A stretch of DNA of 64,000 nt from Arthrobacter sp. ATA002 (GTDB lineage: Bacteria > Actinomycetota > Actinomycetes > Actinomycetales > Micrococcaceae). This document shows, one piece after another, positions 1 to 25,333 of the stretch (position 1 is the stretch's first letter; every line of letters begins with the position of its first letter). The notes under the pieces were generated by a model that saw only the letters and a program-made list of their open reading frames with translations, did not search any database and was not told where the DNA came from. The DNA lies in contig NZ_CP114015.1 in the NCBI RefSeq assembly GCF_026898095.1, positions 3,410,001 to 3,474,000 on the forward strand, given 5' to 3'. Both the position numbers and the translations under genes were made by a program.

Positions 1-826
1 TGGCAAGGACACAAAGAAGAAGGCCCAACGATTGTTTGGGAAGATCAACCAGCTCGGGCTCCCTGAGGATGACAGGAATGAAGTCTTTGCCCAAGGAGTA
101 CTGGCCTTCGAAATCATGCGCCAGAAAGACAACCTAGACGCATTGGACAGTGTTTCTGCTCAAGACATGATTAGCCTTGGAAAGGTGCTAAACACTAGCG
201 CCGATCTCGAAGCAGCCTTGTATCACAAGATTGTCGCTTCAAGGCTAGCGATTATTGAAAAGTTGAACCAGCTTGTCACCGCAAACCAAAAGGAGAAATT
301 CCTTCAGGACCATATCTTTGAACACTTGTGGCTCCTTGACCCGGGATGGGAAAGAGCATCCTCTCCAACCATGGAACAGAGCATGCAGAAAGCATTTAAG
401 GAAGTCGAAGGTAAGCTCACCAAACCTGAACGCGAATCGCGATACGACATCCGGTACCAAAAGACTTCGGGCCAGCACGTCATCATTGAATTAAAGCGTG
501 CGGGCGTCATAACTGATACGGACTCCCTGAGCGCTCAAGTCAAGAAGTACCGCAAGGCACTTACACTCTGGCTGGAAAACCAAAACCGGGGCGATGAACC
601 CCATGCGGTTATCTGTGTCGTTGGCCGAGAGTTACGTGACTGGAGTGACCCGAATGGACGACGGGAGAGTGCAGACCAGTTGCATGCCATAAATACTCGT
701 GTCGTAATGTACGACGAGTTATTGGTTAATGCTCGAAATTCATACGAGGATTTCCTCAAAGAATCTGAGGGAATCGGTCGTGTACAGAAGATCCTGAACG
801 CACTCGTTCCTGTCGTTGACAATTAG
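1..826 (+). CDS. C-terminal part of a PD-(D/E)XK nuclease-like protein (5' end outside window)
   Basis: The frame is open from the first base, so the gene starts upstream of the window; the TTG at 32 is probably internal. The visible 275 residues begin with a Lys-rich stretch and a helical region. Next comes a segment around FLQDHIFEHLWLLDPGWER, and then RYDIRYQK followed by HVIIELKRAG. An Asp followed by a Glu-x-Lys on a hydrophobic strand is the usual PD-(D/E)XK nuclease signature, so a DNA-cleaving domain is inferred. Similar C-termini occur in large proteins with an Hsp90-like ATPase at the N-terminus and in Shedu-type defence nucleases, but the N-terminal domain cannot be seen here. GC content is clearly lower than in the rest of the window, suggesting acquisition by transfer together with the helicase and MazG genes that follow on the other strand. 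Confidence 0.6.
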   Translation, partial: GKDTKKKAQRLFGKINQLGLPEDDRNEVFAQGVLAFEIMRQKDNLDALDSVSAQDMISLGKVLNTSADLEAALYHKIVASRLAIIEKLNQLVTANQKEKFLQDHIFEHLWLLDPGWERASSPTMEQSMQKAFKEVEGKLTKPERESRYDIRYQKTSGQHVIIELKRAGVITDTDSLSAQVKKYRKALTLWLENQNRGDEPHAVICVVGRELRDWSDPNGRRESADQLHAINTRVVMYDELLVNARNSYEDFLKESEGIGRVQKILNALVPVVDN

Positions 827-1076
827 CGTACATTTGACACAGCCTCAAGCTATTAGTAAACCAAAAAGCATCATAGTCAGCCCTCTTCCTACGTTGACTA
901 TGAACTGAGGACGGCTGATGCCTCGACTTCACTACCACGGCGAATACGACGGGCACGCATCCTCGCCAAGACATGGGACTTTAAAAGATGCCATTTGACG
1001 AGGTCAATCTTGCCGACACGGCCTTGTCGGTCATTCGTGTACGAAAATAAGGCTTTGAAGCAGAAGCGTGGTGTGA

Positions 1077-2799
1077 TTAGCCGTTTAGGTATGCCTCGAG
1101 ATGCTCCCTCAGCGCTGGGTCGCAGACGTAAACGTACGTCCCTAAAGTTCCCCGAGTGAGAAGCACGCAGTAGATGTTCCTTACGTACTCGAGGATGTCG
1201 TCATCCGTATAGGTGATACCGAGTTTCGTGTTGTTTTCGCGTCCCTTAACGTCGAAATATTTTGAACGGTTGAAGACGATGCGTCCGCTCTCTGGGTTGT
1301 AGCGAATGTCCTCTCCGATGATGACGCCGGCATAGTTCAGGTCGTAGCCCTGGACGGTATGGATGGATCCAACCTCCTGCTCAGAACCGATGCGGTTGAT
1401 CCAGTCTCGCTGCGTCGAGTTCCACCGAAGGCATTCACCGTCGATCTCAATATCGAACGCTTCTTTATCGGTCTTGCTGCGCCAAGGCCAGGCATACCCG
1501 GCGATCAACCGTGACAGACCGTTCTCTTTTTCTCTACGAAGTATCTCTCGTTTCATTTCGCCGAGATCGGAGAAGAATCGAAGATCGTAACCGTCAAAGC
1601 GTTCCGGGGCCGGGGGCGGACAATCGCTCAGGACGGCGCGAATGTAACCGACGTAATCTTGCTCGGCAGAGATCCTCATTTGAGAAGAGAGCCGGTATAA
1701 GCGGCCGTTGGCCAAGGCCTCTTCTAAGAGAGATGCGGTCGTCTCTGCGGGGAGATCCGCAGGCCGTACGGTCTGTCCGGCATCGAGCATAAGGATGGTG
1801 GTCTTGCTCTGATGCCGGATCCAATCCAACTGGGTACGTTGAGGATCGTCCCAACCAAAGAGTTTTTCGTTGATTTCGGCGAACTTCTTATTCAGCGGTC
1901 CGGAGGCCTGATTCGCCCGTTGATTCAGGCGGTGGGCCTCGTCCACGATGAGGAGATCGAATGGTTCCTTGCTCGCGCCGACGTCGAACGGCGTGAGTAC
2001 GAGATTCTTGCGGAGTCCAGGCGTACGAGAGAACACCCTGGAGATGGAATCACGAAGCGATTGCTGAGGGACCACAATCCCGACTCTGAGCGAAGTCAGT
2101 AGCTCTGCGTGGCCCGCAGTGAAAAAATCGCTGAAAATCGACTCCCGGTCAAGCGGATCTTCCGAGTCGTGTCCCGCTATATCCATGAGCAACTTCAGAA
2201 GGTAAATCGCAACGACCGTTTTCCCAGTTCCGGGAAGTCCCTGGACTACTACGGTGTTGGGGCGGTTGTTCTCGAGATCCTCGAAGAGACCTTCTAAGAT
2301 ATCTTCGACCGCTAGCGCCTGATCATGGTTCAGGGCCTTGAATGGGGACAGCTTGAACAGATCACTGTTGATTATTTCCGGAAGGGTGCGTTGAAAAAGG
2401 TGTTCCTGGGACCGCAGCCTTTCGAAGACTTCGGCAAACGTTTTTTTGTAAGTACCACGGTCGTAGTAGTCGGCATCCGTGATACCGGCGTTGAGGTTGA
2501 GTACTTTAGCCGGCCTTCGCCGGAGAACATTCGGATAAGGAACGATTCGAGGTCCAAGCATGCGGACTTGTTAAAAGTTGAGTCCAGGACGACACGTGCC
2601 CATTTTAGGCGCCTCTTCTCCTCAGATCCGAGGTGCTGGCGCATACGTCCTTCGACGTTGAGTGACTCCCCCACGTACACTTCGGTGTCGTTGTTCATGA
2701 CGTACACGACCGGCCAGTTCCGGTGCAAAGGATCGGATTCCCCCACACCCGCACTTTGTCGGACTTGAACGGGAACCGCTCCAGCCTAAAGCCGGTCAT
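1077..2799 (-). pseudogene. GIY-YIG nuclease plus DUF2075 (Schlafen-like) helicase, two single-base frameshifts
   Basis: Three frames join into one protein of about 574 residues if one base is added to the C run at 2740-2744 and one to the T run at 2505-2507. The ATG at 2797-2799 gives an N-terminus beginning MTGFRLERF. Then follow a GIY-YIG domain (PVVYVMNN, VYVGES, the Arg of GRMRQHL and the Glu of CLDLES) and a DUF2075 helicase with Walker A GLPGTGKT, Walker B LLIVDEAHRL and the closing segment YCVLLTRGTLGTYVYV. This architecture is a known DUF2075 arrangement and is expected to be an ATP-driven nucleic-acid enzyme with a nuclease head. The start overlaps the end of the upstream mazG-like gene by 14 bases, so the two are probably translationally coupled. 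Both lesions are one-base losses in homopolymers, so a sequencing error is more likely than decay. Confidence 0.75.
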
Positions 2800-3106
2800 A
2801 TTTCTCACTTCTGCCGCGCGCTTTGGCGACGGGGTACTTTTCCCGAGTCTTGGCGAGCTTCTCCATCACGATAGTGTCTGGTTCAAGATTCAAACGGTCG
2901 GCGAGCAACAGGCAGTAGGTCAGCACGTCCGCCAACTCGTCTTTTGCCGCCACCACATCGGCGTCGCCCCACTGAAAACACTCAAGAAGCTCGGCGGCTT
3001 CAATGCTGATACTTTTGGCCAGATTCTCGGGTGTATGAAACTGCCCCCATTCCCGCTCCCCGACGAACTCTCGGAGAGCGGTGATCACCGCCTTCTCATT
3101 ACCCAT
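2786..3106 (-). CDS. MazG-type nucleotide pyrophosphohydrolase
   Basis: The 106-residue protein matches the short MazG/RS21-C6 fold, an all-alpha enzyme that hydrolyses (d)NTPs to monophosphates and pyrophosphate. The metal-binding pattern is visible: EAAELLECFQW holds the first E-x-x-E-like pair, and KDELADVLTYCLLLADRL carries the E-x-x-D element of the second helix. It is the first gene of a leftward pair with the GIY-YIG/DUF2075 helicase, overlapping it by 14 bases. In that setting a role in nucleotide sensing or depletion during phage infection is an inference; ordinary pool sanitation is the alternative. The 255 bases upstream to the next gene hold nothing recognisable. Confidence 0.8.
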   Translation of the reverse strand: MGNEKAVITALREFVGEREWGQFHTPENLAKSISIEAAELLECFQWGDADVVAAKDELADVLTYCLLLADRLNLEPDTIVMEKLAKTREKYPVAKARGRSEKYDRL

Positions 3107-3361: not shown

Positions 3362-3933
3362 TCAAACAGCAGACCCTGCAAGCAGCGCGGCCAGCGGAAC
3401 CTCCACTACCTCGCCGTTCAGCACACGCGGATACTGCTGACCTGTGAGCTCAGAGAGGGTGAGCCGGATAAGGGTGCCGTGCGCCACGGCGATGATCCGC
3501 TGGCCGGGGAACTGTACGGCCAAAGCGCGCAGAGCAGCGAGTCCACGGAGTCCCACGGCTTGTTCAAGTTCACCTATGCCGAGGGCAGCTGTAAGCTGCG
3601 GTTCGGTCAGCCCGTTCAGGTGCATACCTTCCGCGGAACCGTAGTCCTCTCAATTAACTCAGGGACGGTGCCGGCCGGCTGCAGTCCGACGGCGTCAGCA
3701 ATATGGCGTGCTGTCTGCACGGCACGCAGCAGCGGTGATGAAACCAGCACATCCCACGAATCTGCGGCCAGCAGCCGTCCGGCTTCGCGCGCCTGGGCGC
3801 GGCCCACAAGGTTTAGCGGGTTGTCTGTGTGGCCCTGCAGCCGCCGCTCCTGGTTCCAATTCGTTTCGCCGTGCCGAACCAGGACCAGCCGTTTCGGCAG
3901 CCTCCCGGTGCCACTTCCGCAAGCAGCGCTCAC
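3362..3933 (-). pseudogene. Histidine phosphatase (phosphoglycerate mutase-like), one single-base frameshift
   Basis: The first part (GTG at 3931-3933) carries the phosphohistidine motif LVLVRHGETNWN and continues to PELIER, where the frame is lost. Adding one base to the CC at 3646-3647 restores DYGSAEGMHLNG and a C-terminal half containing VAHGTLIRL, the second catalytic His. The repaired protein is about 190 residues, normal for small family-2 histidine phosphatases acting on phosphorylated sugars or nucleotides. The start overlaps the stop of the ABC ATPase (GTGA), so it is the last gene of the leftward operon 9759-3362 and the third phosphoesterase in it. Confidence 0.8.
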
Positions 3934-11339: not shown

Positions 11340-12143
11340 GTGAGTGAACCGACGCAGCCAAACAACAACCCCGGGGACGCCCCCGGGCCCTGGAATCCCG
11401 GAGGCCAGGGCCCGGGACAGCAGGGCTCACAGGGCTCGCAGGGTCCCGGCCAGGGCGGGAATTATCCCGGCCCGCCGGCCGGCAACCCCTACCCCGGTCC
11501 CCCGGCAGGAAATCCCTATCCCGGCCCTCAGGGCGGCCCAGGCTACCCGGCCCAGCCCGGATATCCAGGACAGCCCGGCCCCGGCTACCCCGGCCAGCCG
11601 CAGGGCTACGCCTACCCGGGCAGCCCCTACGGCCAGATGCCTCCCGCCGAGGACCCGCCCCGGCCCAAGCAGGTCAACCAGGCGTTCTGGCTTCTAATCG
11701 CCAGCGCCGTCCTGGGACTGATCTCGCTGCCCATCAGCATTGCCTACATGAATTCCCCGGAGTATCTGGAGTACCTGGAAGACGTCTTCGGGGGCATGGG
11801 TGCGGAGGTGGACTCGGAATACTTGTCCGCCGCCATCGCGGGCAGCACCGCCTCCTCCATCGTGTCCGGCCTCTTCGGGCTGGCCGTCAGGGTGGGACTG
11901 GCCTTCCTGGTCCGATCCGGGTTCAACTGGGCGCGGGTCCTGATCACCATCTTCGCCGTGCTTTCCCTCTTCTCGCTGCTCGGCCTGTTTGTCACCGGAC
12001 CGCTGGTCGCCGCTCTGTCCCTTGCCGCGATGCTGGCCACGCTCGCCGCCGTCGTGCTGCTGTTCCTGAAGCCTTCCAGCGAGTACTTCGCGCGTAAGAA
12101 GGCCTACCGGCAGGCGCAGAAGTTCGGCGGCTACCAGGCATAA
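11340..12143 (+). CDS. Membrane protein with Pro/Gly/Tyr-rich N-terminal tail
   Basis: The 267-residue protein starts at a GTG with AGGGGG upstream. Residues 1-110 are a low-complexity cytoplasmic tail with two copies of PAGNPYPGP and several GYPGQP repeats. Four hydrophobic segments follow (about 115-135, 165-190, 198-220 and 222-245), separated by an acidic loop (residues 138-163), and a basic end ARKKAYRQAQKFGG. Such tails are common in actinobacterial membrane proteins of unknown function. It lies alone between divergent and convergent neighbours. Confidence 0.8.
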   Translation: MSEPTQPNNNPGDAPGPWNPGGQGPGQQGSQGSQGPGQGGNYPGPPAGNPYPGPPAGNPYPGPQGGPGYPAQPGYPGQPGPGYPGQPQGYAYPGSPYGQMPPAEDPPRPKQVNQAFWLLIASAVLGLISLPISIAYMNSPEYLEYLEDVFGGMGAEVDSEYLSAAIAGSTASSIVSGLFGLAVRVGLAFLVRSGFNWARVLITIFAVLSLFSLLGLFVTGPLVAALSLAAMLATLAAVVLLFLKPSSEYFARKKAYRQAQKFGGYQA

Positions 12144-12181
12144 GCCTCCGCTGGCCCCCGGACCGGAGATGGGGCAACCAG

Positions 12182-13231
12182 CTACGTGTCCGGGCCGCCG
12201 TCGTCGTCATCACCGCGAAACCCGGTGGACTCGCGCCGAATAATCCGGAAGCCGGCCTTCACCGTCCGCGGCTCGGAATGCTGGCCCTTTTCCGCAATCC
12301 GCTCCACCAGCAGGTTCACCGCGGTTTCGGCGATCTCGTCCCGCCCGGGATCCACGGACGTCAGCGACGGCAGCGAGAACCGTCCCTCGTCGATGTTGTC
12401 GAAGCCGATGACGGCCACGTCGCCGGGCACGCTGAGGCCCGCCTCCGCCAGCGCGCGCAGGGCGCCCAGGCCGAGGGTGTCGTTCAGGGCAAACACGGCG
12501 TCGAACCGCTCGCCCCGGCGGCACAGATCCCGCACCGCAGCCGCTCCGGTGTCCCGGCCCCAGCTGCCGCCGCGCACCACCAGCTCCGGATCGGATTCGA
12601 TCCCCGCCGCGGCCAGCGCCTGGTGGTAGCCGCGCTCGCGCAGGCTGGCCGAGCTCGCCGCGTCGTCCGAGGCATGCGAGGCCCCCACCAGGGCGATCCG
12701 CGACCGGCCGATCTCCAGCAGGTGTTCGACGGCGGCCCGCGCCGAAGACGTGTTGTGCATGGTCACGTGGTCGGTGGGGCCGCCGAAAATCCGCTCCCCC
12801 AGCAGCACCAGCGGCTCCTCCATGGTCAGCACATCCACGTCCTCCTGGCCCAGGTCGGCGGGGCTGAACAGCATGCCGTCGACAAACCGCAACGAGCCGC
12901 CGGACAGCGCCGCAAGCTCAAGTTTCCGCTCACCGTTGGTCTGTTCGATCAGGACCCGGAGTCCTTGCCGGGCGGCGGCGCGGATCACTGAATCGGCCAG
13001 CTCGGCAAAGTAGTTTTCCCGCAGTGAGGGAACCGCCAGCCCGATCACCCCGGTTTTGCCCGACCGCAGTCCCCGGGCGGAAAGATTGGGCCGGTACCCC
13101 AGCTCGTCGATGACCCGCCGCACCCGCGACCGGGTTTCCGGCCCGACCTTGGGATTGTCATTGATCACGTTGGACACGGTTTTGATCGACACTCCGGCCA
13201 TCCGGGCCACGTCGTGCATCGTCGGACTCAT
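12182..13231 (-). CDS. LacI-family repressor, probable arabinose regulator
   Basis: About 349 residues from the ATG at 13229-13231. It opens with the LacI helix-turn-helix (MHDVARMAGVSIKTVSNVIN) and hinge helix (NLSARGLRSGKTGVIG), followed by a periplasmic-binding-like sensor domain (VIGFDNIDEGRFSLPSLTSV). The open frame runs further upstream to 13582, but the extra residues are not family sequence. It is divergent from the arabinofuranosidase gene, and a perfect palindrome with a central CG lies between the two; both suggest it represses that operon until an arabinose sugar binds. Confidence 0.88.
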   Translation of the reverse strand: MSPTMHDVARMAGVSIKTVSNVINDNPKVGPETRSRVRRVIDELGYRPNLSARGLRSGKTGVIGLAVPSLRENYFAELADSVIRAAARQGLRVLIEQTNGERKLELAALSGGSLRFVDGMLFSPADLGQEDVDVLTMEEPLVLLGERIFGGPTDHVTMHNTSSARAAVEHLLEIGRSRIALVGASHASDDAASSASLRERGYHQALAAAGIESDPELVVRGGSWGRDTGAAAVRDLCRRGERFDAVFALNDTLGLGALRALAEAGLSVPGDVAVIGFDNIDEGRFSLPSLTSVDPGRDEIAETAVNLLVERIAEKGQHSEPRTVKAGFRIIRRESTGFRGDDDDGGPDT

Positions 13232-13391
13232 GCTGGTGCCCTGACCCTTTCCTGCCCCGCAGCATCTCCGTCCGGGCAATGACCAAATCCTAGCCGCATC
13301 CCGGGCCCGCGTTGGCCACGGTGTTCCGCCCCGCCGTCGGGCACAAACCACTTGAGTAAAACGACATCTTTCACTATTTTTCCAAAAACTC

Positions 13392-13420
13392 TTGACGCCA
13401 AAAGCAACTAGGCCTAATGT
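13392..13420 (+). promoter_or_regulatory. Probable sigma-70-type promoter for the arabinofuranosidase operon
   Basis: TTGACG at 13392-13397 and TAATGT at 13415-13420 are separated by 17 bases, the ideal spacing for a housekeeping promoter. The region is AT-rich compared with its surroundings and lies about 100 bases before the start of the GH51 gene, with the operator palindrome directly downstream. Confidence 0.6.
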
Positions 13421-13422
13421 CC

Positions 13423-13438
13423 GGTACAACGTTGTACC
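13423..13438. promoter_or_regulatory. LacI-type operator palindrome
   Basis: GGTACAACGTTGTACC is a perfect 16-base palindrome with the central CG step typical of LacI-family operators. It begins two bases after the -10 element, so a bound repressor would cover the transcription start. The LacI gene next to it is the obvious candidate binder (inference). Confidence 0.7.
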
Positions 13439-13520
13439 AACCCGTTCCACCATTCCCCTCCAATGCCCGATCCTGCCCTCAGGCACGGGCACGCAGTGAC
13501 ATTTTGACGACGGAGTCCCT

Positions 13521-15032
13521 ATGCCCAACGCCCGCATCACCCTCGACCCCCACTTCACGGTGGCACCGGTCAGCCGCCGCATCTTTGGCTCCTTCGTGGA
13601 GCACCTCGGCCGCGCCGTCTACGACGGCATTTACGAACCCGGCCACCGCGCCGCCAACGCCGACGGCTTCCGCCGCGACGTCATCGACCTGGTGCGGGAA
13701 CTGGGAGTGTCGACCATCCGCTATCCGGGCGGCAACTTTGTCTCCGGCTACCGCTGGGAGGACGGCGTGGGCCCGCGGGAGGCACGGCCGCGCCGGCTCG
13801 ACCTCGCCTGGCACTCCACCGAAAGCAACGAGGTGGGCCTCGACGAATTCGCCCGGTGGACCAAGGAGGTCGACGGCGAACTCATGTACGCGGTCAACCT
13901 GGGCACACGCGGCGTGCAGGAGGCCCTGGACGTGCTCGAATACGCGAACATCCCCTCCGGCACCACGCTCTCCGACCAGCGCATCGCCAACGGCAGCCCG
14001 GAGCCGCACGCCATCCGCATGTGGTGCCTGGGCAACGAAATGGACGGACCGTGGCAGCTCGGCCACGGCACCGCCACCGAATACGGCCGGCTGGCCGCCA
14101 AAACCGCGCAGGCCATGCGCCAGATCGATCCCACTCTCGAGCTCGTGGTCTGCGGCAGCTCCGGCGCCGGCATGCCGACCTTCGGCGTGTGGGAGCGCAC
14201 CGTCCTCGAGGAGACCTACGAGCACGTCGACTTCATTTCCTGCCACGCCTACTACGAACCGCACGACGGCGACGTCGCCAGCTTCCTGGCCTCGGCGGTC
14301 AGCATGGACCGGTTCATCGATTCGGTGGTCGCGAGCGCGGACCATGTGAAGGCCGTCCGCCGCAGCGACAAGACCATGTACCTGTCCTTCGACGAATGGA
14401 ACGTCTGGTACCAGAGCGTGTACAACGACGTCGAGAAGATCACCGATCCGTCCGCGTGGCCGCAGGCGCCGCGCCTGCTGGAGAACGCCTACTCGGCGAT
14501 GGACGCCGTCGTCGTCGGCAGCCTGCTGATCAGCCTGCTCCGCCACGCCGACCGGGTCACCGCCGCCAGCCTGGCCCAGCTGGTCAATGTGATCGCGCCG
14601 ATCACCACCGAACCCGGCGGACCGGCCTGGCGGCAGACCACCTTCTATCCGTTCGCGATTACCTCCCGGCTGGCCCGCGGCACCGTCCTGGATCCGAAAA
14701 TCGACTCCCCGCTGATAGCCACGGACGCCTACGGCGAGGTGCCGATGGTGGACGCCGTCGCCACCCATGACGACGCCGCCGGCACCGCCTCGGTGTTCCT
14801 GGTCAACCGCAGCCTCACCGAGACGGTCACCGTCAGCATTGACGCCGGCCCGCTGGGGATCCTGCACGTCCGGAGCGCCGAAACCCTGCACGACGAGGAC
14901 TTCTCCGCCGGCAACACCCTCGCCGACCAGGACCGGGTGGTCCCCGAACCCAACAAAACCGCCCGCGTGGAGGGCGGAACGGTCACCGTGACCCTTCCGC
15001 CCGTGTCGTGGACGGCGCTTGACCTGCACTAG
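13521..15032 (+). CDS. abfA: Alpha-L-arabinofuranosidase, GH51
   Basis: The 503-residue protein matches intracellular GH51 enzymes throughout: N-terminal FGSFVEHLGRAVYDGIYEP, STIRYPGGNFVSGY, the acid/base Glu in CLGNEMDGPW and the nucleophile Glu in SFDEWNVWY, then the beta-sandwich C-terminal domain. It removes terminal alpha-L-arabinofuranosyl units from arabinan, arabinoxylan or short arabino-oligosaccharides. There is no signal peptide, so the oligosaccharides must be imported first, which fits the ABC importer encoded downstream. It is the first gene of the operon 13521-18433. Confidence 0.95.
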   Translation: MPNARITLDPHFTVAPVSRRIFGSFVEHLGRAVYDGIYEPGHRAANADGFRRDVIDLVRELGVSTIRYPGGNFVSGYRWEDGVGPREARPRRLDLAWHSTESNEVGLDEFARWTKEVDGELMYAVNLGTRGVQEALDVLEYANIPSGTTLSDQRIANGSPEPHAIRMWCLGNEMDGPWQLGHGTATEYGRLAAKTAQAMRQIDPTLELVVCGSSGAGMPTFGVWERTVLEETYEHVDFISCHAYYEPHDGDVASFLASAVSMDRFIDSVVASADHVKAVRRSDKTMYLSFDEWNVWYQSVYNDVEKITDPSAWPQAPRLLENAYSAMDAVVVGSLLISLLRHADRVTAASLAQLVNVIAPITTEPGGPAWRQTTFYPFAITSRLARGTVLDPKIDSPLIATDAYGEVPMVDAVATHDDAAGTASVFLVNRSLTETVTVSIDAGPLGILHVRSAETLHDEDFSAGNTLADQDRVVPEPNKTARVEGGTVTVTLPPVSWTALDLH

Positions 15033-15099
15033 GCACTTTCCAGCCCTACCCCTGAACGAGTTCTCCGGTTCCACCATCACTCATACAAAGGAGTACGCA

Positions 15100-16482
15100 G
15101 TGCGAAAGAGAAAGATCCAGACAAAGAGCCTGCTCGCAGCAGGAATGACGACAACCCTGGCCCTGGCCCTGGTCGCGTGCGGCGGCAACGACGACGACGG
15201 CGGCGGCGGCGGGGAAGGTGCGGGCGCCAGCAAAACGAACTGCGCCAATGACATCAAGGTCCAGGACGTTCCCGTGGTCACGTACTGGGGCTGGTTCGAG
15301 GACACCGCGCAGACAGTGGACCTCTTCAACGAAAGCAACGACGACGTGCAGATCTGCTGGACCAACGCGGGCCAGGGCGCCGACGCCTACACCAAGCTGT
15401 CCACCTCACTGCAGTCCAACTCCGGTGCGCCGGACATTGCCCAGATCGAGTACGACTGGCTGAACAGCTTCCTCATCCAGGGCGGGCTCGTGGACATGAC
15501 CGAACACGGGATCGAGGAGTACGAGGACAACTTCACCGCCGGCGCCTGGCGCGACGTGTCCAGCGGCGACGGGGTGTACGCGGTGCCGGTCGACCTCGGG
15601 CCCGTGGGCATGTGGTACCGGCAGGACATCTTCGACCAGCACGGCATCGCCGTGCCGACCACCTGGGAGGAGTACGCGGCGGCGGCCCAGCAGCTGAGCG
15701 CGGCCACCGGCGGAGAGACCCTGATCGGCAACTTCGCGCCCAACGGACAGGGCCAGCACTACGCCTTCCTGGACCAGGCCGGCGCCACGCCCTTCGACTT
15801 CGACAACGGCAATCCGACCGACATCAGCATCAACCACAACGACGACGCCAGCAAGAAGGTCTTTGACTACTGGATCGATCTGGTGGATGAGGACCTGGTG
15901 GGCACCGACCAGGCCTGGACTCCGGAGTTCAGCACCGCCCTGGGCACCGGCAAGTACGCCACGGCGATCTACCCGGTCTGGTACAACATCCACATCCCGG
16001 CGCTGGAAGGCGCTGACTCGGAGGCCGTGTGGCGCGCCGCTCCGATTCCGCAGTGGGACGGGGCCGAGGCCCGGCAGGTGAACTGGGGCGGCAGCACGCT
16101 GGCCGTCACGGTACAGGCCGACGACGCCGCCCTCGCCACCCGGGTCGCAGCCGAACTCTACGAATCCCAGGAAACCAAGGAACTCGGCGTCGAGGTGGGC
16201 GGCCTCTTCCTCGCCTATCCGGAAATGATCGAGTCCAGCTACTTTCAGGACCGCCCCTACGAGTTCTACGGCGGGCAGCAGCTGAACAAGGAAATCTTCG
16301 GTCAGGCTGCCCTGGACTATGAGGGCGTGACGTTCTCGCCGTTCACCCAGTTCTACTACGACGAATCCCAGCGCCTGCTCTCCGAAGCGATCGAAGGCAA
16401 CATCTCGGCCGAGGAAGCGGCGGATGAGCTGCAGGCCTCACTGGAAACCTACGCCACCGAGCAGGGTTTCACCCTGAAATAA
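15100..16482 (+). CDS. Sugar ABC importer lipoprotein, arabino-oligosaccharide type
   Basis: About 460 residues from a GTG at 15100 preceded by AAAGGAG. A lipoprotein signal (basic VRKRKIQTK, hydrophobic core, ALALVACGG) and an Asp/Gly-rich tether precede a family 1 solute-binding fold (VVTYWGWFEDTAQTVDLFN). Similarity in style to AraN-like proteins and the preceding GH51 gene suggest that it captures arabinose-containing oligosaccharides. It is followed by a strong hairpin and the two permease genes. No ATPase is in the cluster, so a shared MsiK-like ATPase elsewhere is likely, as is common in actinobacteria. Confidence 0.88.
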   Translation: MRKRKIQTKSLLAAGMTTTLALALVACGGNDDDGGGGGEGAGASKTNCANDIKVQDVPVVTYWGWFEDTAQTVDLFNESNDDVQICWTNAGQGADAYTKLSTSLQSNSGAPDIAQIEYDWLNSFLIQGGLVDMTEHGIEEYEDNFTAGAWRDVSSGDGVYAVPVDLGPVGMWYRQDIFDQHGIAVPTTWEEYAAAAQQLSAATGGETLIGNFAPNGQGQHYAFLDQAGATPFDFDNGNPTDISINHNDDASKKVFDYWIDLVDEDLVGTDQAWTPEFSTALGTGKYATAIYPVWYNIHIPALEGADSEAVWRAAPIPQWDGAEARQVNWGGSTLAVTVQADDAALATRVAAELYESQETKELGVEVGGLFLAYPEMIESSYFQDRPYEFYGGQQLNKEIFGQAALDYEGVTFSPFTQFYYDESQRLLSEAIEGNISAEEAADELQASLETYATEQGFTLK

Positions 16483-16557: not shown

Positions 16558-17499
16558 ATGTCAGCCAGCACAGCGCTCGAAACGCCGGCCCGTCCCCCGG
16601 CCACACCAAAGCGGGGAACCACTCTGGAGCGCAAGACCGCGCGGTTCGGCTGGGTGTTCCTGGCCCCGTTCGCGGTGGTGTTCCTGGTTTTCCTCGTCCT
16701 GCCCCTGGGGTACGCCTTCTGGATGAGCCTGCACACCAACACCCTCGCCGGCGGTGAACAGTTCGCCGGCCTGGCGAACTACACCAGGGCGTTCACGGAC
16801 GAACGCTTCCTGTCCGGCCTGACCCGCGTGGGCGGGTTCGCCCTGGTTTTCGTGCCGCTGCAGATCGGGCTGGCGCTCGTGTTCGCGCTCATCCTCGACG
16901 ACGTTCGAACCCGGCTGTCCCGTTTCACCCGGCTGATGATCTTCGCTCCCTACGCCATCCCCGGCGTCATCGGCGCCCTGATGTGGGGCTTTCTCTACAG
17001 TCCCTCCTTCGGGCCGCTGGTGGGTTTCTTCGATTTCCTGAACGTGCAGGCACCGGACCTGCTGAGCCGGGATTCGATTTTCTGGTCACTGACCAACATC
17101 GTCACCTGGCAGTGGACGGGCTACTACATGATCATCATCTACGCGTCGCTGCAGTCCATCGATCCGTCCATCTACGAGGCCGCCCGGATTGACGGGGCCA
17201 CCCGGCTGCAGACGGCATTGCAGATCAAGATCCCCATTGTCACGTCCTCCCTGGTGCTCACCGGGGTGTTCGCGCTGATTGGCACGCTGCAGTTCTTTAC
17301 CGAGCCGCAGGTGCTGGCGCCGCTGGCCGGCAACGCGATTGACGCCGCCTACACCCCCAACCTCTATGCCTACAACCTGGCGTTCTCGTACCAGCAGTTC
17401 AACTACGCGTCGGCCATTTCCTTCGCGCTGGGACTCATGGTCTTCCTCGCCTCCATCATTTTCCTCATTGCCACCCGCAGGAAGAGCGGACTCAACTGA
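16558..17499 (+). CDS. Sugar ABC importer permease 1 (MalF/AraP-like)
   Basis: The 313-residue inner-membrane permease has six predicted spans and the cytoplasmic EAA loop YEAARIDGATRLQTALQIKI that docks the ATPase. The ATG follows AAGGAAGAG. It pairs with the next gene, whose ATG overlaps this stop by one base. The hydrophobic basic tail ends RRKSGLN. Confidence 0.9.
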   Translation: MSASTALETPARPPATPKRGTTLERKTARFGWVFLAPFAVVFLVFLVLPLGYAFWMSLHTNTLAGGEQFAGLANYTRAFTDERFLSGLTRVGGFALVFVPLQIGLALVFALILDDVRTRLSRFTRLMIFAPYAIPGVIGALMWGFLYSPSFGPLVGFFDFLNVQAPDLLSRDSIFWSLTNIVTWQWTGYYMIIIYASLQSIDPSIYEAARIDGATRLQTALQIKIPIVTSSLVLTGVFALIGTLQFFTEPQVLAPLAGNAIDAAYTPNLYAYNLAFSYQQFNYASAISFALGLMVFLASIIFLIATRRKSGLN

Positions 17500-18433
17500 T
17501 GACAACTTCACCGGCCCCACTCCTCGACGACGCCGTCACCGCCGCCGGTCCGCGCGGCAAGCGCCGCGCCGCCAAAACCAAACCCCGGCGTGAACGCTCG
17601 GTCGGCCTGCATATCCTCCTCGCCGTCGCCTCCCTGTACTTCCTGCTGCCGATGTGGTGGCTCATCGTCGCGGGCACCAAGAGCACCCAGGGCCTGTTTA
17701 CCGGCAGCGGAGGCCCGCTCTGGTTCGACTCGAACTTTGCCCTGTTCGACAACCTCCAGCAGCTGGCCACCTACAACAACGGCATTTACCTGCGCTGGCT
17801 GGGCAATTCCTTCCTGTACGCCATGGCCGGCGGCGTTGGTGCCACGGTGCTGGCTGTGCTGGCCGGCTACGCCTTCGCGAAATACCGGTTCCGGGGACGC
17901 ACCGTCAGCTTCATGGTGCTCCTGGCCTCGGTGATGGTGCCGGCGACGGCGCTGGTCATCCCGACGTACGTGCTGTTCAACAACCTCGGCCTCACCAACA
18001 CGGTCTGGGCCGTCATCCTGCCGTCCCTGCTGAGCCCGTTCGGCGTGTACCTCATGCGCGTGTACGTCCAGGACGCCATTCCGGACGAGCTGCTGGACGC
18101 AGCCAGAGTGGACGGCTCGGGGAAATCCGGACCTTCTTCACCATCGCCCTGCCGCTCATGCGGCCCGCCGTCGTCACGGTGCTGCTGCTGTCCGTGGTCG
18201 GCGGCTGGAACAATTACTTCCTGCCGCTGGCCATGATTTCGGACCAGACCCTGCTGCCGGTCACCGTGGGCCTGAACGCCTGGCAGGTGCAGTCCAACTC
18301 CGCCACCGCCAACAGCCTGGTGTGGAATCTGGTGACCAGCGGCTCCCTGGTCTCCGTCATCCCGCTCATCATCGCGTTCCTGATGCTGCAGAAGTACTGG
18401 CAGGGCGGGCTCTCGGTGGGAAGCCTCAAATAG
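17499..18433 (+). pseudogene. Sugar ABC importer permease 2 (MalG/AraQ-like), one single-base frameshift
   Basis: The frame reads a normal MalG-type permease to the EAA loop (DELLDAARVDGSG) and then breaks at the G run 18119-18122. One added G continues EIRTFFTIALPLMRP and a full C-terminus ending WQGGLSVGSLK, giving about 311 residues. The lesion is in the middle of the most conserved loop yet everything on both sides is intact, which argues for a base-calling error. With the preceding permease it forms the heterodimeric channel for the arabinose oligosaccharide importer. Confidence 0.85.
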
Positions 18434-22595: not shown

Positions 22596-24125
22596 TGCGC
22601 ACTTCCTTTCAGTACCAGGTCCAGCACGGCGTGCTCGTCCAGGCCGGCGGCGTCGCTGACGGCCAGGGTGCGGCCGGCGTCGAGCACCAGGACCCTGTCC
22701 GCCAGCCCGATAACTTCCTCAATTTCGCTGGAGACCACCACGATGGCCACGCCGCGGGCGGCGAGACCGCGGATCAGCGCATAAATCTCGGTTTTGGCTC
22801 CCACATCCACGCCGCGGGTGGGTTCATCCAGCAGCAGCACCCGGGTGCCGTGGATCAGCCAGCGGGCCAGCAGCACCTTTTGCTGGTTGCCGCCGGACAG
22901 GGTGTGGGCCGGGCGGTCCGGATCCTGCGGATCCACCTGCAGCGCCGTCATCTGCTCCCGGGCCGCATCCTTTTCCCGGCGCACGTTGAGCAGCCCGCGC
23001 CGCGCGAACCGCGCGAAGGTGGAGAGGGTGGCGTTCAGGTAAACCGGTTCCTCCAGCAGCAGGCCCTGGCTCTTGCGTTCCTCCGGGGAAAGCCCGACGC
23101 CGGCGGTTACGGCGGCGCGCACGGAACCGGGCCGCAGCTCCCGGCCGTCGACGCTCACCGTTCCGGCGGTGGCCTTGCGCGCCCCGTACATCGTTTCCAG
23201 GATCTCGGACCGGCCGGACCCCACCAGCCCGGCGAGCCCGAGGATTTCCCCGGCGTGCACCGTGAAGCTCACGTCCGCAAAGGACCCGGCCAGCCCCAGG
23301 CCCTGCACCTGAAGCAGCACCGGAGCCGCGGACGGGTCCGCACCGCGCTGCGGAAACACGTTGGCGACGTCCCGTCCGGTCATCAACCGCACCAGGTCCG
23401 CGCGGCGGGCGTCGGCAGCCGGCAGCGAGGATGCCGTGCTGTAGCCGTCCTTGAGCACCGAGATGCGGCTGCCGATCTGCCGGATCTCCTCCAGCCGGTG
23501 GGAGATGTAGACGACGGCAATATTCTGGGCGGTCAGTTCCCGGATCACCCGGAACAGGTTCGCCACCTCCGCCGAGTCCAGGATGGCGCTGGGCTCGTCC
23601 ATGATGATGAGCCGGGCGTTGCGGGACAGCGCCCGGGCCAGGCTGACGATCTGCTTGCTGGCCGCCGGCGAGTCCTCCCACTTCGGCTCCGGGCGGCAGA
23701 TCGGCGTGGCCCAGCCGCGCCAGCAGTTCGCGCGCCCGCCGCCGGGCGTCCTTGACGCGCAGCACTCCCCCGCGGGCATCCTCGTGGCCCAGGAAAATGT
23801 TCTCGGTGACGTTCAGCCCGTCCACCACATCCAGTTCCTGGTACATGGTGGCGATGCCCAGCTCCAGCGCCGCCGTGGGGCTGGCCAGCCGGACGGGCTG
23901 CCCGTCCCAGCGGATCTCGCCGCCGTCGGGCTGGTGGACCCCGGAGAGTGCCTTGATCAGGGTGGATTTGCCGGCGCCGTTCTGGCCCAGGATGCAGTGC
24001 ACTTCACCGGGCAGCACCTCAAGGTTCACGTCCTTGAGCGCCCGCACCCCGGCGAAACTCTTGCTCAGGTTCCGGACGTCAAGCAGCGGTGGTACGCGGA
24101 CGGCTCCGGCGCTGGCGGCTTCCAT
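22592..24125 (-). pseudogene. Ribose-type ABC sugar ATPase (two cassettes), one frameshift
   Basis: Two overlapping frames encode one MglA/RbsA-like protein of about 510 residues. Cassette 1 has Walker [12 protein letters not shown] and breaks after PPGAEVG; the other frame resumes at SPAASKQIVSLARALSRN with Walker B LIIMDEPSAIL, and cassette 2 follows with [14 protein letters not shown] and VLLLDEPTRGVDVG. The break lies near the CCC at 23677-23679. Here the shift is plus one (one extra base, or two missing), unlike the other frameshifts in the window. The start is uncertain: an ATG at 24125 was taken, with ATG 24137 and GTG 24143 also possible. Confidence 0.82.
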
Positions 24126-24286
24126 GCCGGGGAGCATACACACTTGTGGCGGGCATCAGTAGGATGCTGGCGATTCTTCCCCGCACGTCTGTTACTGTGG
24201 CGGCCATCACAAAGAGGTGCACGGCGGAAAGGGGCTGCCGGCTGCGTCTCTTCGCGGCACAGCAATCACCTTCGGAGGAGACATCC

Positions 24287-25333
24287 ATGCAGACAGCACG
24301 CGCAACCGGCCGCAAACAGCTCCTGAAAACCGCGGCGCTCATCGCCGCCGGCGGACTCGTCCTCACCGCCTGTTCCCCCGGCGATGAATCCAACAGCGAA
24401 CCGACCAACAACTCCGTGGAAGGCAACCAGGCCGAGGGTGAAACCGCCGTCATCGGCTTCTCCGGCCCCGCCCAAGACCACGGCTGGCTCGGCGCCATCA
24501 ACTCCGCGGCCCTCGCCGAAGCCGAGAAATATCCGGACATCGAGCTGCGCGTCGCCGAGGGCACCAATGACGCCAACCTGCAGATCAGCCAGGTGGAGCA
24601 GTTCATCAACGACCAGGTGGACGCCATAGTGCTGCTGCCCACCGACGGTGCCGCCCTGACCGAGGTGGCAACCCGGGCCATGGAAGCGGGCATCCCCGTG
24701 GTCAATGTGGACCGGGAGTTCTCCAGCCCGTTCGCGGCCCGCACCACCGTGCTCGGCGACAACTACGGCATGGGCGTCAGCGCCGGCACGTACATCTGCG
24801 AGCAGGTGGGCGACCAGCCCGACGCCGTCGTGGCCGAAATCGCCGGTGTCGATTCGCTGCCGCTCACCCAGGACCGCAGCCAGGGGTTCGAGGACGCGCT
24901 GGAAGGCTGCGGGCTGGAGGTCAGCAACCGGGTGGCCGCGGATTTCACGGTCCAGGGCGGGGAGGCCGCAACCTCCCAGCTGCTCTCGGCCGCACCGGAA
25001 ATCGACGCGCTGTGGAACCACGACGACGACCAGGGCATCGGCGTCCTCGCGGCCATCGACGCTGCCGGCCGCGATGAATTCATCATGGTCGGCGGCGCCG
25101 GGTCGGCCAACGCCATGCGGGAAATCCAGTCCGGCGAAGGCGTCCTGCAGGCCACGATCATTTATCCGCACACCCAGGCCGCCGACGGAATCCGGCTCGC
25201 CCGGCTACTGGTTCAGGACAAGGCCATGAGCGACCTGGTGGAAATCGAAGTGCCCAACCGGGTGGTCCTGAACGCCCCGGTGGTCACGAGCGAAAACGTG
25301 GAGGAGTACCTGCCCACCGCGTTCGAGTCCTGA
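24287..25333 (+). CDS. Ribose-type sugar-binding lipoprotein
   Basis: About 348 residues from an ATG with GGAGGAG seven bases upstream. A lipoprotein signal ends GGLVLTACSPG, followed by an acidic Asn-rich tether and a type I periplasmic-binding fold (TAVIGFSGPAQDHGWLGAIN, VVNVDREF, ALWNHDDDQGIGVL). It is the probable sugar receptor for the ATPase and permease encoded divergently; the 161 bases between them must hold both promoters. It ends at a very strong hairpin. Confidence 0.9.
   Translation: MQTARATGRKQLLKTAALIAAGGLVLTACSPGDESNSEPTNNSVEGNQAEGETAVIGFSGPAQDHGWLGAINSAALAEAEKYPDIELRVAEGTNDANLQISQVEQFINDQVDAIVLLPTDGAALTEVATRAMEAGIPVVNVDREFSSPFAARTTVLGDNYGMGVSAGTYICEQVGDQPDAVVAEIAGVDSLPLTQDRSQGFEDALEGCGLEVSNRVAADFTVQGGEAATSQLLSAAPEIDALWNHDDDQGIGVLAAIDAAGRDEFIMVGGAGSANAMREIQSGEGVLQATIIYPHTQAADGIRLARLLVQDKAMSDLVEIEVPNRVVLNAPVVTSENVEEYLPTAFES

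What the first reader, a model, noticed from the sequence alone, without database searches (positions are those of the whole stretch)
1..3106. Low-GC block with nuclease, GIY-YIG helicase and MazG: edge of a possible defence island
The first 3.1 kb differs in base composition from the rest and carries three genes of nucleic-acid or nucleotide enzymes: a PD-(D/E)XK-type C-terminus, a GIY-YIG plus DUF2075 (Schlafen-like) helicase and a MazG pyrophosphohydrolase overlapping it. A nuclease-helicase coupled to a nucleotide pyrophosphohydrolase would make a coherent anti-phage or abortive module. I do not know a named system with exactly this make-up, and it is the best candidate here for something undescribed.
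Basis: partly seen in the sequence, partly recalled or inferred. Interest (0 to 1): 0.7.

Follow-up and report, generated by a model that had tools for sequence, protein, structure and literature searches.

The report
MazG–nuclease-helicase pair in defence hotspot
A small nucleotide-destroying enzyme and a DNA-cutting helicase travel together as a tightly joined gene pair in many actinobacteria, often beside virus-defence genes, and look like an undescribed anti-virus system; the copy in this genome reads as broken.

Summary
Observation largely confirmed. The low-GC block is real (52.8% vs 67.8%; lowest 3.1-kb window elsewhere 63.5%) and is the right edge of a longer block. The "PD-(D/E)XK" piece (2-826) is the C-terminus of a BbrUII/HgiDII-family type II restriction enzyme (766.9 bits, cut-off 550), an ordinary R-M component convergent with the pair. 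The GIY-YIG/SLFN-g3 helicase gene spans three frames here, while relatives are intact; other window genes are split too, so assembly indels are the likely cause.

The mazG-helicase pair is a genuine two-gene operon. Of 295 family genomes 45 carry the helicase, 43 this MazG, 42 both. In 80 named loci mazG is directly upstream in 72, mostly with the 14-nt overlap seen in the window. Distant pairs occur in Bacillota and a haloarchaeon. Nearest neighbours hit 95 PADLOC families against 10 for random genes; the site is a defence hotspot in the genus.

Best reading: a two-gene anti-phage nuclease-helicase system with a dCTPase-like MazG, without a PADLOC model or a description in the papers searched. 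Defence activity is inferred; MazG's role is open.

The parts
2786..3106 (-). mazG-like gene (106 aa), NTP pyrophosphohydrolase of the dCTP pyrophosphatase (DCTPP1/RS21-C6) type
   Evidence: PF12643 67.1 bits; nearest solved relatives 4qgp 'pyrophosphatase' (65 bits) and RS21-C6 / dCTP pyrophosphatase 1 (2a3q, 6sqw; 57 bits); adjacent to the helicase gene in relatives
2786..2799 (-). 14-nt overlap of the end of mazG with the start of the helicase gene
   Evidence: same 14-nt overlap in 27 of 28 loci with a complete helicase start, 11 nt in the other; start codons were picked by my own script
1077..2799 (-). GIY-YIG nuclease / SF1 (SLFN-g3, annotated DUF2075 in relatives) helicase gene, broken into three frames in this genome
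   Evidence: frame switches against the intact congener protein; intact open frames in relatives
2507..2743 (-). GIY-YIG nuclease domain (own frame)
   Evidence: PF01541 29.8 bits; Y33, Y42, G44, R52, E85, N102 invariant in 48 relatives
1077..2504 (-). SLFN-g3 superfamily 1 helicase domain (own frame)
   Evidence: PF09848 215 bits; model of the A. citreus relative matches UvrD (Z 21.1) and SLFN11 (Z 19.5)
2..826 (+). C-terminal part of a BbrUII/HgiDII-family type II restriction enzyme (gene begins left of the window, L002:13847); neighbour, not part of the pair
   Evidence: NF050001 766.9 bits vs cut-off 550 on the full 659-aa protein
3362..3933 (-). histidine-phosphatase-like gene at the border of the hotspot, also split over two frames here
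   Evidence: single gene in the eight other genomes read at this site; split over frames in the window; function name is my reading of the sequence, from no call

Best explanation
The window edge holds a two-gene anti-phage module, mazG followed by a GIY-YIG-SF1 helicase, in a chromosomal defence hotspot next to an ordinary type II restriction-modification system. Most likely mechanism: the helicase loads on and moves along invading DNA (ends, gaps or replication intermediates) and the GIY-YIG domain cuts it. The co-translated MazG, a dCTP-pyrophosphatase-type enzyme, hydrolyses deoxynucleotides, either starving phage replication (my first choice, about 0.45) or removing modified dCTP (about 0.3). 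Shown: the two genes, their domains and invariant motifs in relatives, near-obligate linkage in the actinobacterial clade, conserved overlap, patchy distribution, defence neighbourhood. Inferred: co-translation, anti-phage activity, substrate, trigger. In this genome the nuclease-helicase frame is interrupted; assembly indels are the likelier cause, and if the breaks are real the local copy is probably inactive.
For: Two-way linkage: 45 of 295 family genomes have the helicase (fragments counted), 43 of 295 the MazG, 42 both, Fisher p 3e-46, 41 adjacent on one contig, the other (G082) split by contig ends; of the four genomes with one match only, two (G158, G215) carry remnants of both genes. 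Wider named set, which overlaps the first (at least 6 of 80 contig lengths recur in the family set): 72 of 80 have mazG directly upstream, one has a MazG directly downstream and one has mazG one gene away. Overlap of 14 nt in 27 of 28. Distant pairs: L. plantarum and Priestia plasmids, a haloarchaeal plasmid, L. salivarius with the order reversed. Neighbourhood: 95 vs 10 PADLOC families at E<=1e-20 in 134 vs 134 genes. Hotspot: the same site holds a type IV restriction enzyme (G117, 1153 bits), a type IIG enzyme (G032, 1653 bits) or a type I methylase (G100, 674 bits). Patchy: 4 of the 24 congeners sampled, G000 included.
Against: No phage assay exists. PADLOC has no model that fits either gene, only weak partial hits for the helicase. 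Five of 79 assessable named loci have the helicase without MazG, and in 11 of the 16 distant plasmid/phage records that I read (of 41 found) no MazG was found beside this helicase class, so MazG is not universally needed. The type IV enzyme seen beside the pair in three congeners shows no genome-wide association with it (18 of 45 vs 91 of 250). Three of nine readable sites hold no defence gene that I recognised (my reading of the sequences). Within the genus all four copies share the left flank, so there the pattern may be old presence with losses rather than mobility. Several pairs lie among genes that I read as metabolic, e.g. in three Brevibacterium loci.
Confidence: 0.72

Rival explanations
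1. A DNA-repair or genome-maintenance module: a UvrC-like GIY-YIG nuclease with a helicase, plus a housecleaning NTP pyrophosphohydrolase that removes damaged nucleotides.
For: Both enzyme classes have repair or housecleaning members (general knowledge); nearest helicase folds include UvrD (Z 21.1); MazG resembles a pool-cleaning dCTPase; in the genus all four copies share a left flank.
Against: Present in only 45 of 295 family genomes, variable surroundings, strong enrichment of defence-family matches next to it and distant pairs on plasmids.
Confidence: 0.12
2. The nuclease-helicase is the defence protein, and MazG is a protective partner (antidote-like or pool-sanitising) that keeps the nuclease from attacking host DNA carrying odd nucleotides, rather than a weapon.
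For: Some helicases of the class stand without MazG; [quoted passage not shown] a second nucleotide hydrolase and McrB-like or DUF3427 genes flank some distant pairs.
Against: No co-occurrence of the pair with the type IV enzyme beyond chance across genomes; no substrate data.
Confidence: 0.25
3. A selfish nuclease element (homing-like GIY-YIG) or passenger of islands without function for the host.
For: GIY-YIG is used by homing nucleases (general knowledge); patchy distribution.
Against: Two-gene organisation with a nucleotide enzyme and a conserved 14-nt overlap; few shared neighbours across 80 loci of many genera; motif residues of both helicase-gene domains invariant in 48 relatives.
Confidence: 0.04
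4. In this particular genome the pair is a real pseudogene: the nuclease-helicase has decayed.
For: Three frames are needed to read it; remnants exist in G158, G209 and G215.
Against: 4 of 18 window proteins with good homologues, this one included, are split over frames, vs 0 of 35 in eight congener stretches; completeness estimate 94.2% for a single-contig genome against 99-100% in the congeners. Both point to indel errors in the assembly.
Confidence: 0.3

Closest known systems
Gabija (GajA OLD-type nuclease + GajB UvrD-type helicase)
   Same: Two-gene system that pairs a nuclease with an SF1 helicase; nucleotide levels matter for Gabija (recalled).
   Different: Nuclease and helicase are fused here and the second gene is a MazG. 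No GajA or GajB match for the helicase, GIY-YIG or MazG pieces nor for 48 intact relatives of the helicase.
Nhi and AbiO (SF1 helicase-type defence proteins)
   Same: Weak, partial PADLOC matches (24-29 bits for the window and A. citreus helicases).
   Different: Matches cover only part of each profile; a GIY-YIG domain and a MazG partner are not part of those systems (recalled).
Schlafens
   Same: Helicase domain of the SLFN group 3 type (PF09848; SLFN11 Z 19.5).
   Different: No Schlafen RNase core in Pfam scans; a GIY-YIG domain stands at the N-terminus.
MazG as predicted defence domain (DefensePredictor, PMC13092281, passages seen)
   Same: That paper lists a MazG NTP pyrophosphohydrolase among predicted domains of which none has been validated.
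   Different: The passage does not name a partner; the main text held has no occurrence of 'helicase', 'GIY-YIG', 'Schlafen' or 'DUF2075'. Its figures and supplements were not seen, so the same pair could be in them.
BbrUII/HgiDII type II restriction enzymes (neighbour at 2-826)
   Same: Full-length match above cut-off, with a C5 methylase two genes upstream.
   Different: A second GIY-YIG gene lies between methylase and restriction enzyme; on an Arthrobacter and a Curtobacterium plasmid a methylase-GIY-YIG pair stands without this enzyme.

Membership tests
MazG-like NTP pyrophosphohydrolase (DCTPP type) | PF12643 profile above gathering score | tested here: met
   67.1 bits vs 27; dCTP pyrophosphatase 1 is among its 5 matches to solved structures
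MazG-like NTP pyrophosphohydrolase (DCTPP type) | hydrolysis of dCTP or modified dCTP | not testable with these tools
   needs enzyme assay
GIY-YIG nuclease | PF01541 above gathering score and conserved catalytic residues | tested here: met
   29.8 bits vs 22.6 in the window; 25 of 48 relatives match at E<=0.001, while Y33, Y42, G44, R52, E85, N102 are invariant in all 48; their catalytic role is recalled
SLFN group 3 / SF1 helicase | PF09848 and Walker motifs | tested here: met
   215 bits in the window, 48 of 48 relatives; G188, G191-T195 and D287, E288, H290 invariant in 48
Schlafen proper | Schlafen RNase core domain | tested here: not met
   no such Pfam match in the window pieces or in 48 relatives at E<=0.001; a very diverged core could be missed
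Gabija | GajA (OLD-type) gene with GajB | tested here: not met
   no GajA or GajB match for the pair's proteins or among the 12 families matched by 48 relatives of the helicase
AbiO / Nhi / PDC-S41 / PDC-S14 (PADLOC) | full-length profile match | tested here: not met
   13.6-29.1 bits over part of the profiles for the window pieces, 18.9-26.2 for the A. citreus relative; best E among 48 relatives 9.2e-11 (PDC-S41)
BbrUII/HgiDII restriction enzyme (window 2-826 and left) | NF050001 above curated cut-off | tested here: met
   766.9 vs 550 bits, residues 6-653 of 659
BbrUII/HgiDII restriction enzyme (window 2-826 and left) | adjacent cognate C5 methylase | tested here: inconclusive
   C5 methylase present two genes upstream, but methylase-GIY-YIG pairs without the enzyme exist on plasmids
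Anti-phage defence system | protection against phage | not testable with these tools
   only genomic context tested

The most novel reading that the evidence does not exclude
A previously unnamed class of prokaryotic immune system in which a dCTPase-type MazG and an SF1 helicase with a variable N-terminal (nuclease) domain form the core. The same core appears with GIY-YIG in Actinomycetota and Bacillota and with other N-termini in Priestia and a haloarchaeon. It couples destruction of phage DNA with removal of (modified) deoxynucleotides from the pool.
Probability: 0.35. Interest if true: 0.8.

Novelty: new variant of a known kind. Interest (0 to 1): 0.6.

Why it matters
If the pair protects against phages it adds a compact two-gene system, found in many Micrococcales and with distant relatives in Bacillota and archaea, to the defence catalogues. 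It would also give a direct experimental handle on why nucleotide-pool enzymes sit beside nuclease-helicases in immune loci; MazG is predicted but, according to PMC13092281 (passages seen), not validated as a defence domain. It also puts a helicase with a Schlafen-like fold next to a nucleotide hydrolase.

Tried and rejected
Rejected: the three genes as one module (the restriction enzyme is an R-M component on the other strand). Rejected: a functional partnership of the pair with the type IV enzyme found beside it in G117, G058 and G146. That enzyme family is in 109 of 295 family genomes (E<=1e-60, partial and distant matches counted) and its presence is independent of the pair (18 of 45 vs 91 of 250, p 0.74), so only co-location is left. 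Rejected: phage origin. One weak relative in viral contigs (26%); in 50,697 phage records 4 matches, the best in an unverified gut scaffold. Led nowhere: tRNA insertion sites (none found); sequence search of solved structures with the helicase alignment (no hit); the mirror-tree test of MazG against helicase was weak (Spearman 0.44, 60 loci).

Literature: no held paper joins DUF2075 with MazG or with GIY-YIG; 'GIY-YIG, MazG, defense, helicase' gave one paper, on a phage nuclease (listing only); DUF2075 alone gave 5 papers, none on defence by title and abstract start. Broader searches were seen only in part: 25 of 1,305, 15 of 106, 12 of 153. A BREX survey (PMC12839542, passages seen) speaks of Schlafen RNases, not of this helicase. 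Burroughs 2015 and Makarova 2011, which may treat the genes, are not held. 'Not in print' is limited to these searches.

Rows dropped before counts: for the 146 nearest neighbours were cut to 138 by a residue cap and a 1100-aa limit, and I left out 4 more (three MazG genes and one helicase fragment), leaving 134. Four of 80 loci gave no helicase position in the gene calling. L111 is cut by a contig end; the site in G297 (L153) was too short to read. The 16 distant records are 15 of 37 plasmid records and 1 of 4 phage records, picked by hand from the upper rows. The fold look barely tests the GIY-YIG part. The gene caller is my own crude script. Control genes come from one family only, at round-number positions that I chose.
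Full report
What is there. The window is G000:C1:3410001-3474000 of a single-contig 3.9 Mb genome. The first 3106 bases have 52.8% GC against 67.8% for the rest; none of 578 other 3.1-kb windows is below 63.5%. Lower GC continues to the left, interrupted by an IS21-type element. I fetched that DNA (locus L002; window position = L002 position minus 15000). From left to right it holds the IS21-type transposase pair (L002:8211-10528), a C5 cytosine methylase (11400-12617), a 238-aa GIY-YIG protein (12724-13440) and a 659-aa ATPase (13847-15826). The ATPase matches NCBIfam NF050001, BbrUII/HgiDII family restriction enzyme, with 766.9 bits against a cut-off of 550. M.HgiDII is reported to recognise GTCGAC (PMC5867850, passages seen). 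So this part is an ordinary type II restriction-modification arrangement. A methylase-GIY-YIG pair without this enzyme occurs on an Arthrobacter and a Curtobacterium plasmid, which leaves open which genes are cognate.

The pair. On the other strand lie mazG (2786-3106) and the GIY-YIG/SLFN-g3 helicase gene (start codon at 2799, end 1077). The end of mazG overlaps the start of the helicase gene by 14 nt. In this genome the helicase gene is not one open frame: an intact congener protein (90% identical in the helicase part) aligns in three successive frames, about 2814-2740, 2743-2507 and 2504-1083. Intact copies exist in relatives as single frames.

Error or decay? I compared 58 predicted proteins of a congener (G146) with the window. 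Of 18 with good homologues, 4 are split over frames: the helicase, the histidine-phosphatase-like gene (3365-3915) and genes at 17499-18430 and 23667-25330. In eight congener stretches 0 of 35 were split. The completeness estimate of G000 is 94.2%, against 99-100% for the congeners. Indel errors in the assembly are the likelier explanation, but true decay cannot be excluded, and remnants of the genes exist elsewhere (G158, G209, G215).

Linkage. In 295 genomes of the family, 45 have the helicase (fragments counted) and 43 have this MazG; 42 have both, Fisher p 3e-46, and 41 of these are adjacent on one contig. In the 42nd, G082, the two genes lie at contig ends. Of the four genomes with one match only, G158 has mazG plus the beginning of the helicase gene, G215 has fragments of both, G209 a helicase fragment, and G228 a full helicase without MazG. 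This set overlaps the family set: at least 6 of the 80 contig lengths recur there. mazG is directly upstream in 72 of 80. One locus has a different MazG directly downstream (L066), one has mazG with one gene between (L085), one is cut by a contig end (L111), and five lack it (L067, L072, L081, L107, L112). The overlap is 14 nt in 27 of 28 loci with a complete helicase start, the start codons being picked by my script. Of 41 more distant plasmid or phage records I read 16 (24-57% identity); five have a MazG beside the helicase: L. plantarum, Priestia, the archaeon Halalkalicoccus, L. salivarius (order reversed) and an unverified gut scaffold; eleven do not. [quoted passage not shown]

Neighbourhood. 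I scanned 134 nearest-neighbour genes of the pair and 134 genes from 20 arbitrary regions of pair-bearing genomes with PADLOC at E<=1e-20. The neighbours hit 95 families, the controls 10. Family counts are not gene counts: only the first 25 of the 95 families were shown, and some (mad3, PbeA) also hit the controls. Informative ones among the neighbours include type IV restriction enzymes (4 members), PDC-S48 (3), PD-Lambda-1 (2), Orf5/HEC-06 (2), and single members for AbiU, Drt3b and type II methylases. The controls come from one family, the neighbours from many. In the genus, the site next to the phosphatase-like and ABC transporter genes is a hotspot. Of 29 genus genomes searched, ten have the ABC gene at 82-100% identity, and in nine of them I could read the site. 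G000, G117 and G146 have the pair (the latter two with a type IV-like helicase). G032 has a type IIG enzyme (1653 bits), a DrmD-like helicase (308 bits) and an Orf5/HEC-06-type protein (288 bits). G100 has a type I methylase (674 bits), G279 an UvrD-like helicase of unclear meaning. G204, G194 and G295 show no defence gene that I recognised by reading the sequences. G058 also carries the pair next to a type IV-like helicase and shares the left flank with G117, but the phosphatase and ABC genes were not found in the stretch held. So all four congener copies lie in one region, which fits old presence with losses as well as gain. The type IV-like helicase is not associated with the pair genome-wide.

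Enzymes. Among solved structures the MazG is closest to a pyrophosphatase (4qgp) and to RS21-C6/dCTP pyrophosphatase 1. [quoted passage not shown] The helicase of the A. citreus relative was modelled with mean pLDDT 90.6. Its helicase part matches UvrD (Z 21.1, rmsd 3.8, 311 residues) and SLFN11 (Z 19.5, rmsd 3.7, 275 residues). GIY-YIG and Walker residues are invariant in 48 relatives.

Mechanism. Shown: two overlapping genes for two enzymes whose motifs are intact in relatives, inherited together, patchy, in defence neighbourhoods. Inferred: the nuclease-helicase attacks invading DNA and the MazG acts on deoxynucleotides at the same time. I favour pool depletion during phage replication over sanitising of modified dCTP, without direct evidence for either.

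Known or new. PADLOC has no fitting model for either gene. The held papers found by my searches do not join these domains (the broad ones seen in part). A 2026 paper lists MazG among predicted, unvalidated defence domains (PMC13092281, passages seen); its figures and supplements, which may show this very pair, were not seen. Two older comparative papers that might discuss it are not held. I therefore call it a new variant of a known kind, nuclease-helicase defence with a nucleotide-pool partner, and not a proven new class.

Noticed in passing
L002:7397-8089 (+), left of the window: Protein with an Imm52 immunity-protein match (26.6 bits, cut-off 25), possibly part of a polymorphic-toxin immunity cluster.
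   Followed up: no
window 17499-18430 and 23667-25330: Two further genes split over frames against the congener G146, pointing to indel errors in this assembly.
   Followed up: partly
L115:952-11323 (L. plantarum plasmid NZ_CP028230.1): Operon-like row: annotated (deoxy)nucleoside triphosphate pyrophosphohydrolase, PLD/DUF3427 helicase, MazG, GIY-YIG/SLFN-g3 helicase, two hypothetical proteins and a DUF2357 protein.
   Followed up: partly
L189:279-4185 (Priestia plasmid NZ_CP083270.1): MutT, a protein with the MrcB-like N-terminal domain PF12102, MazG and an SLFN-g3 helicase in a row.
   Followed up: partly
L085:3494-4297: A 268-aa protein without Pfam match sits between mazG and the helicase gene.
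   Followed up: no
L084:8154-10014: mazG is duplicated, one copy apparently truncated, upstream of the helicase gene.
   Followed up: no
L002:11400-13440: The C5 methylase and 238-aa GIY-YIG gene have relatives as a pair on two plasmids, perhaps an R-M unit of its own.
   Followed up: partly
L120:6466-8710 (MT836409.1): An unverified 'Bacteriophage sp.' gut scaffold carries the mazG-helicase pair; phage origin or bacterial carry-over not resolved.
   Followed up: no
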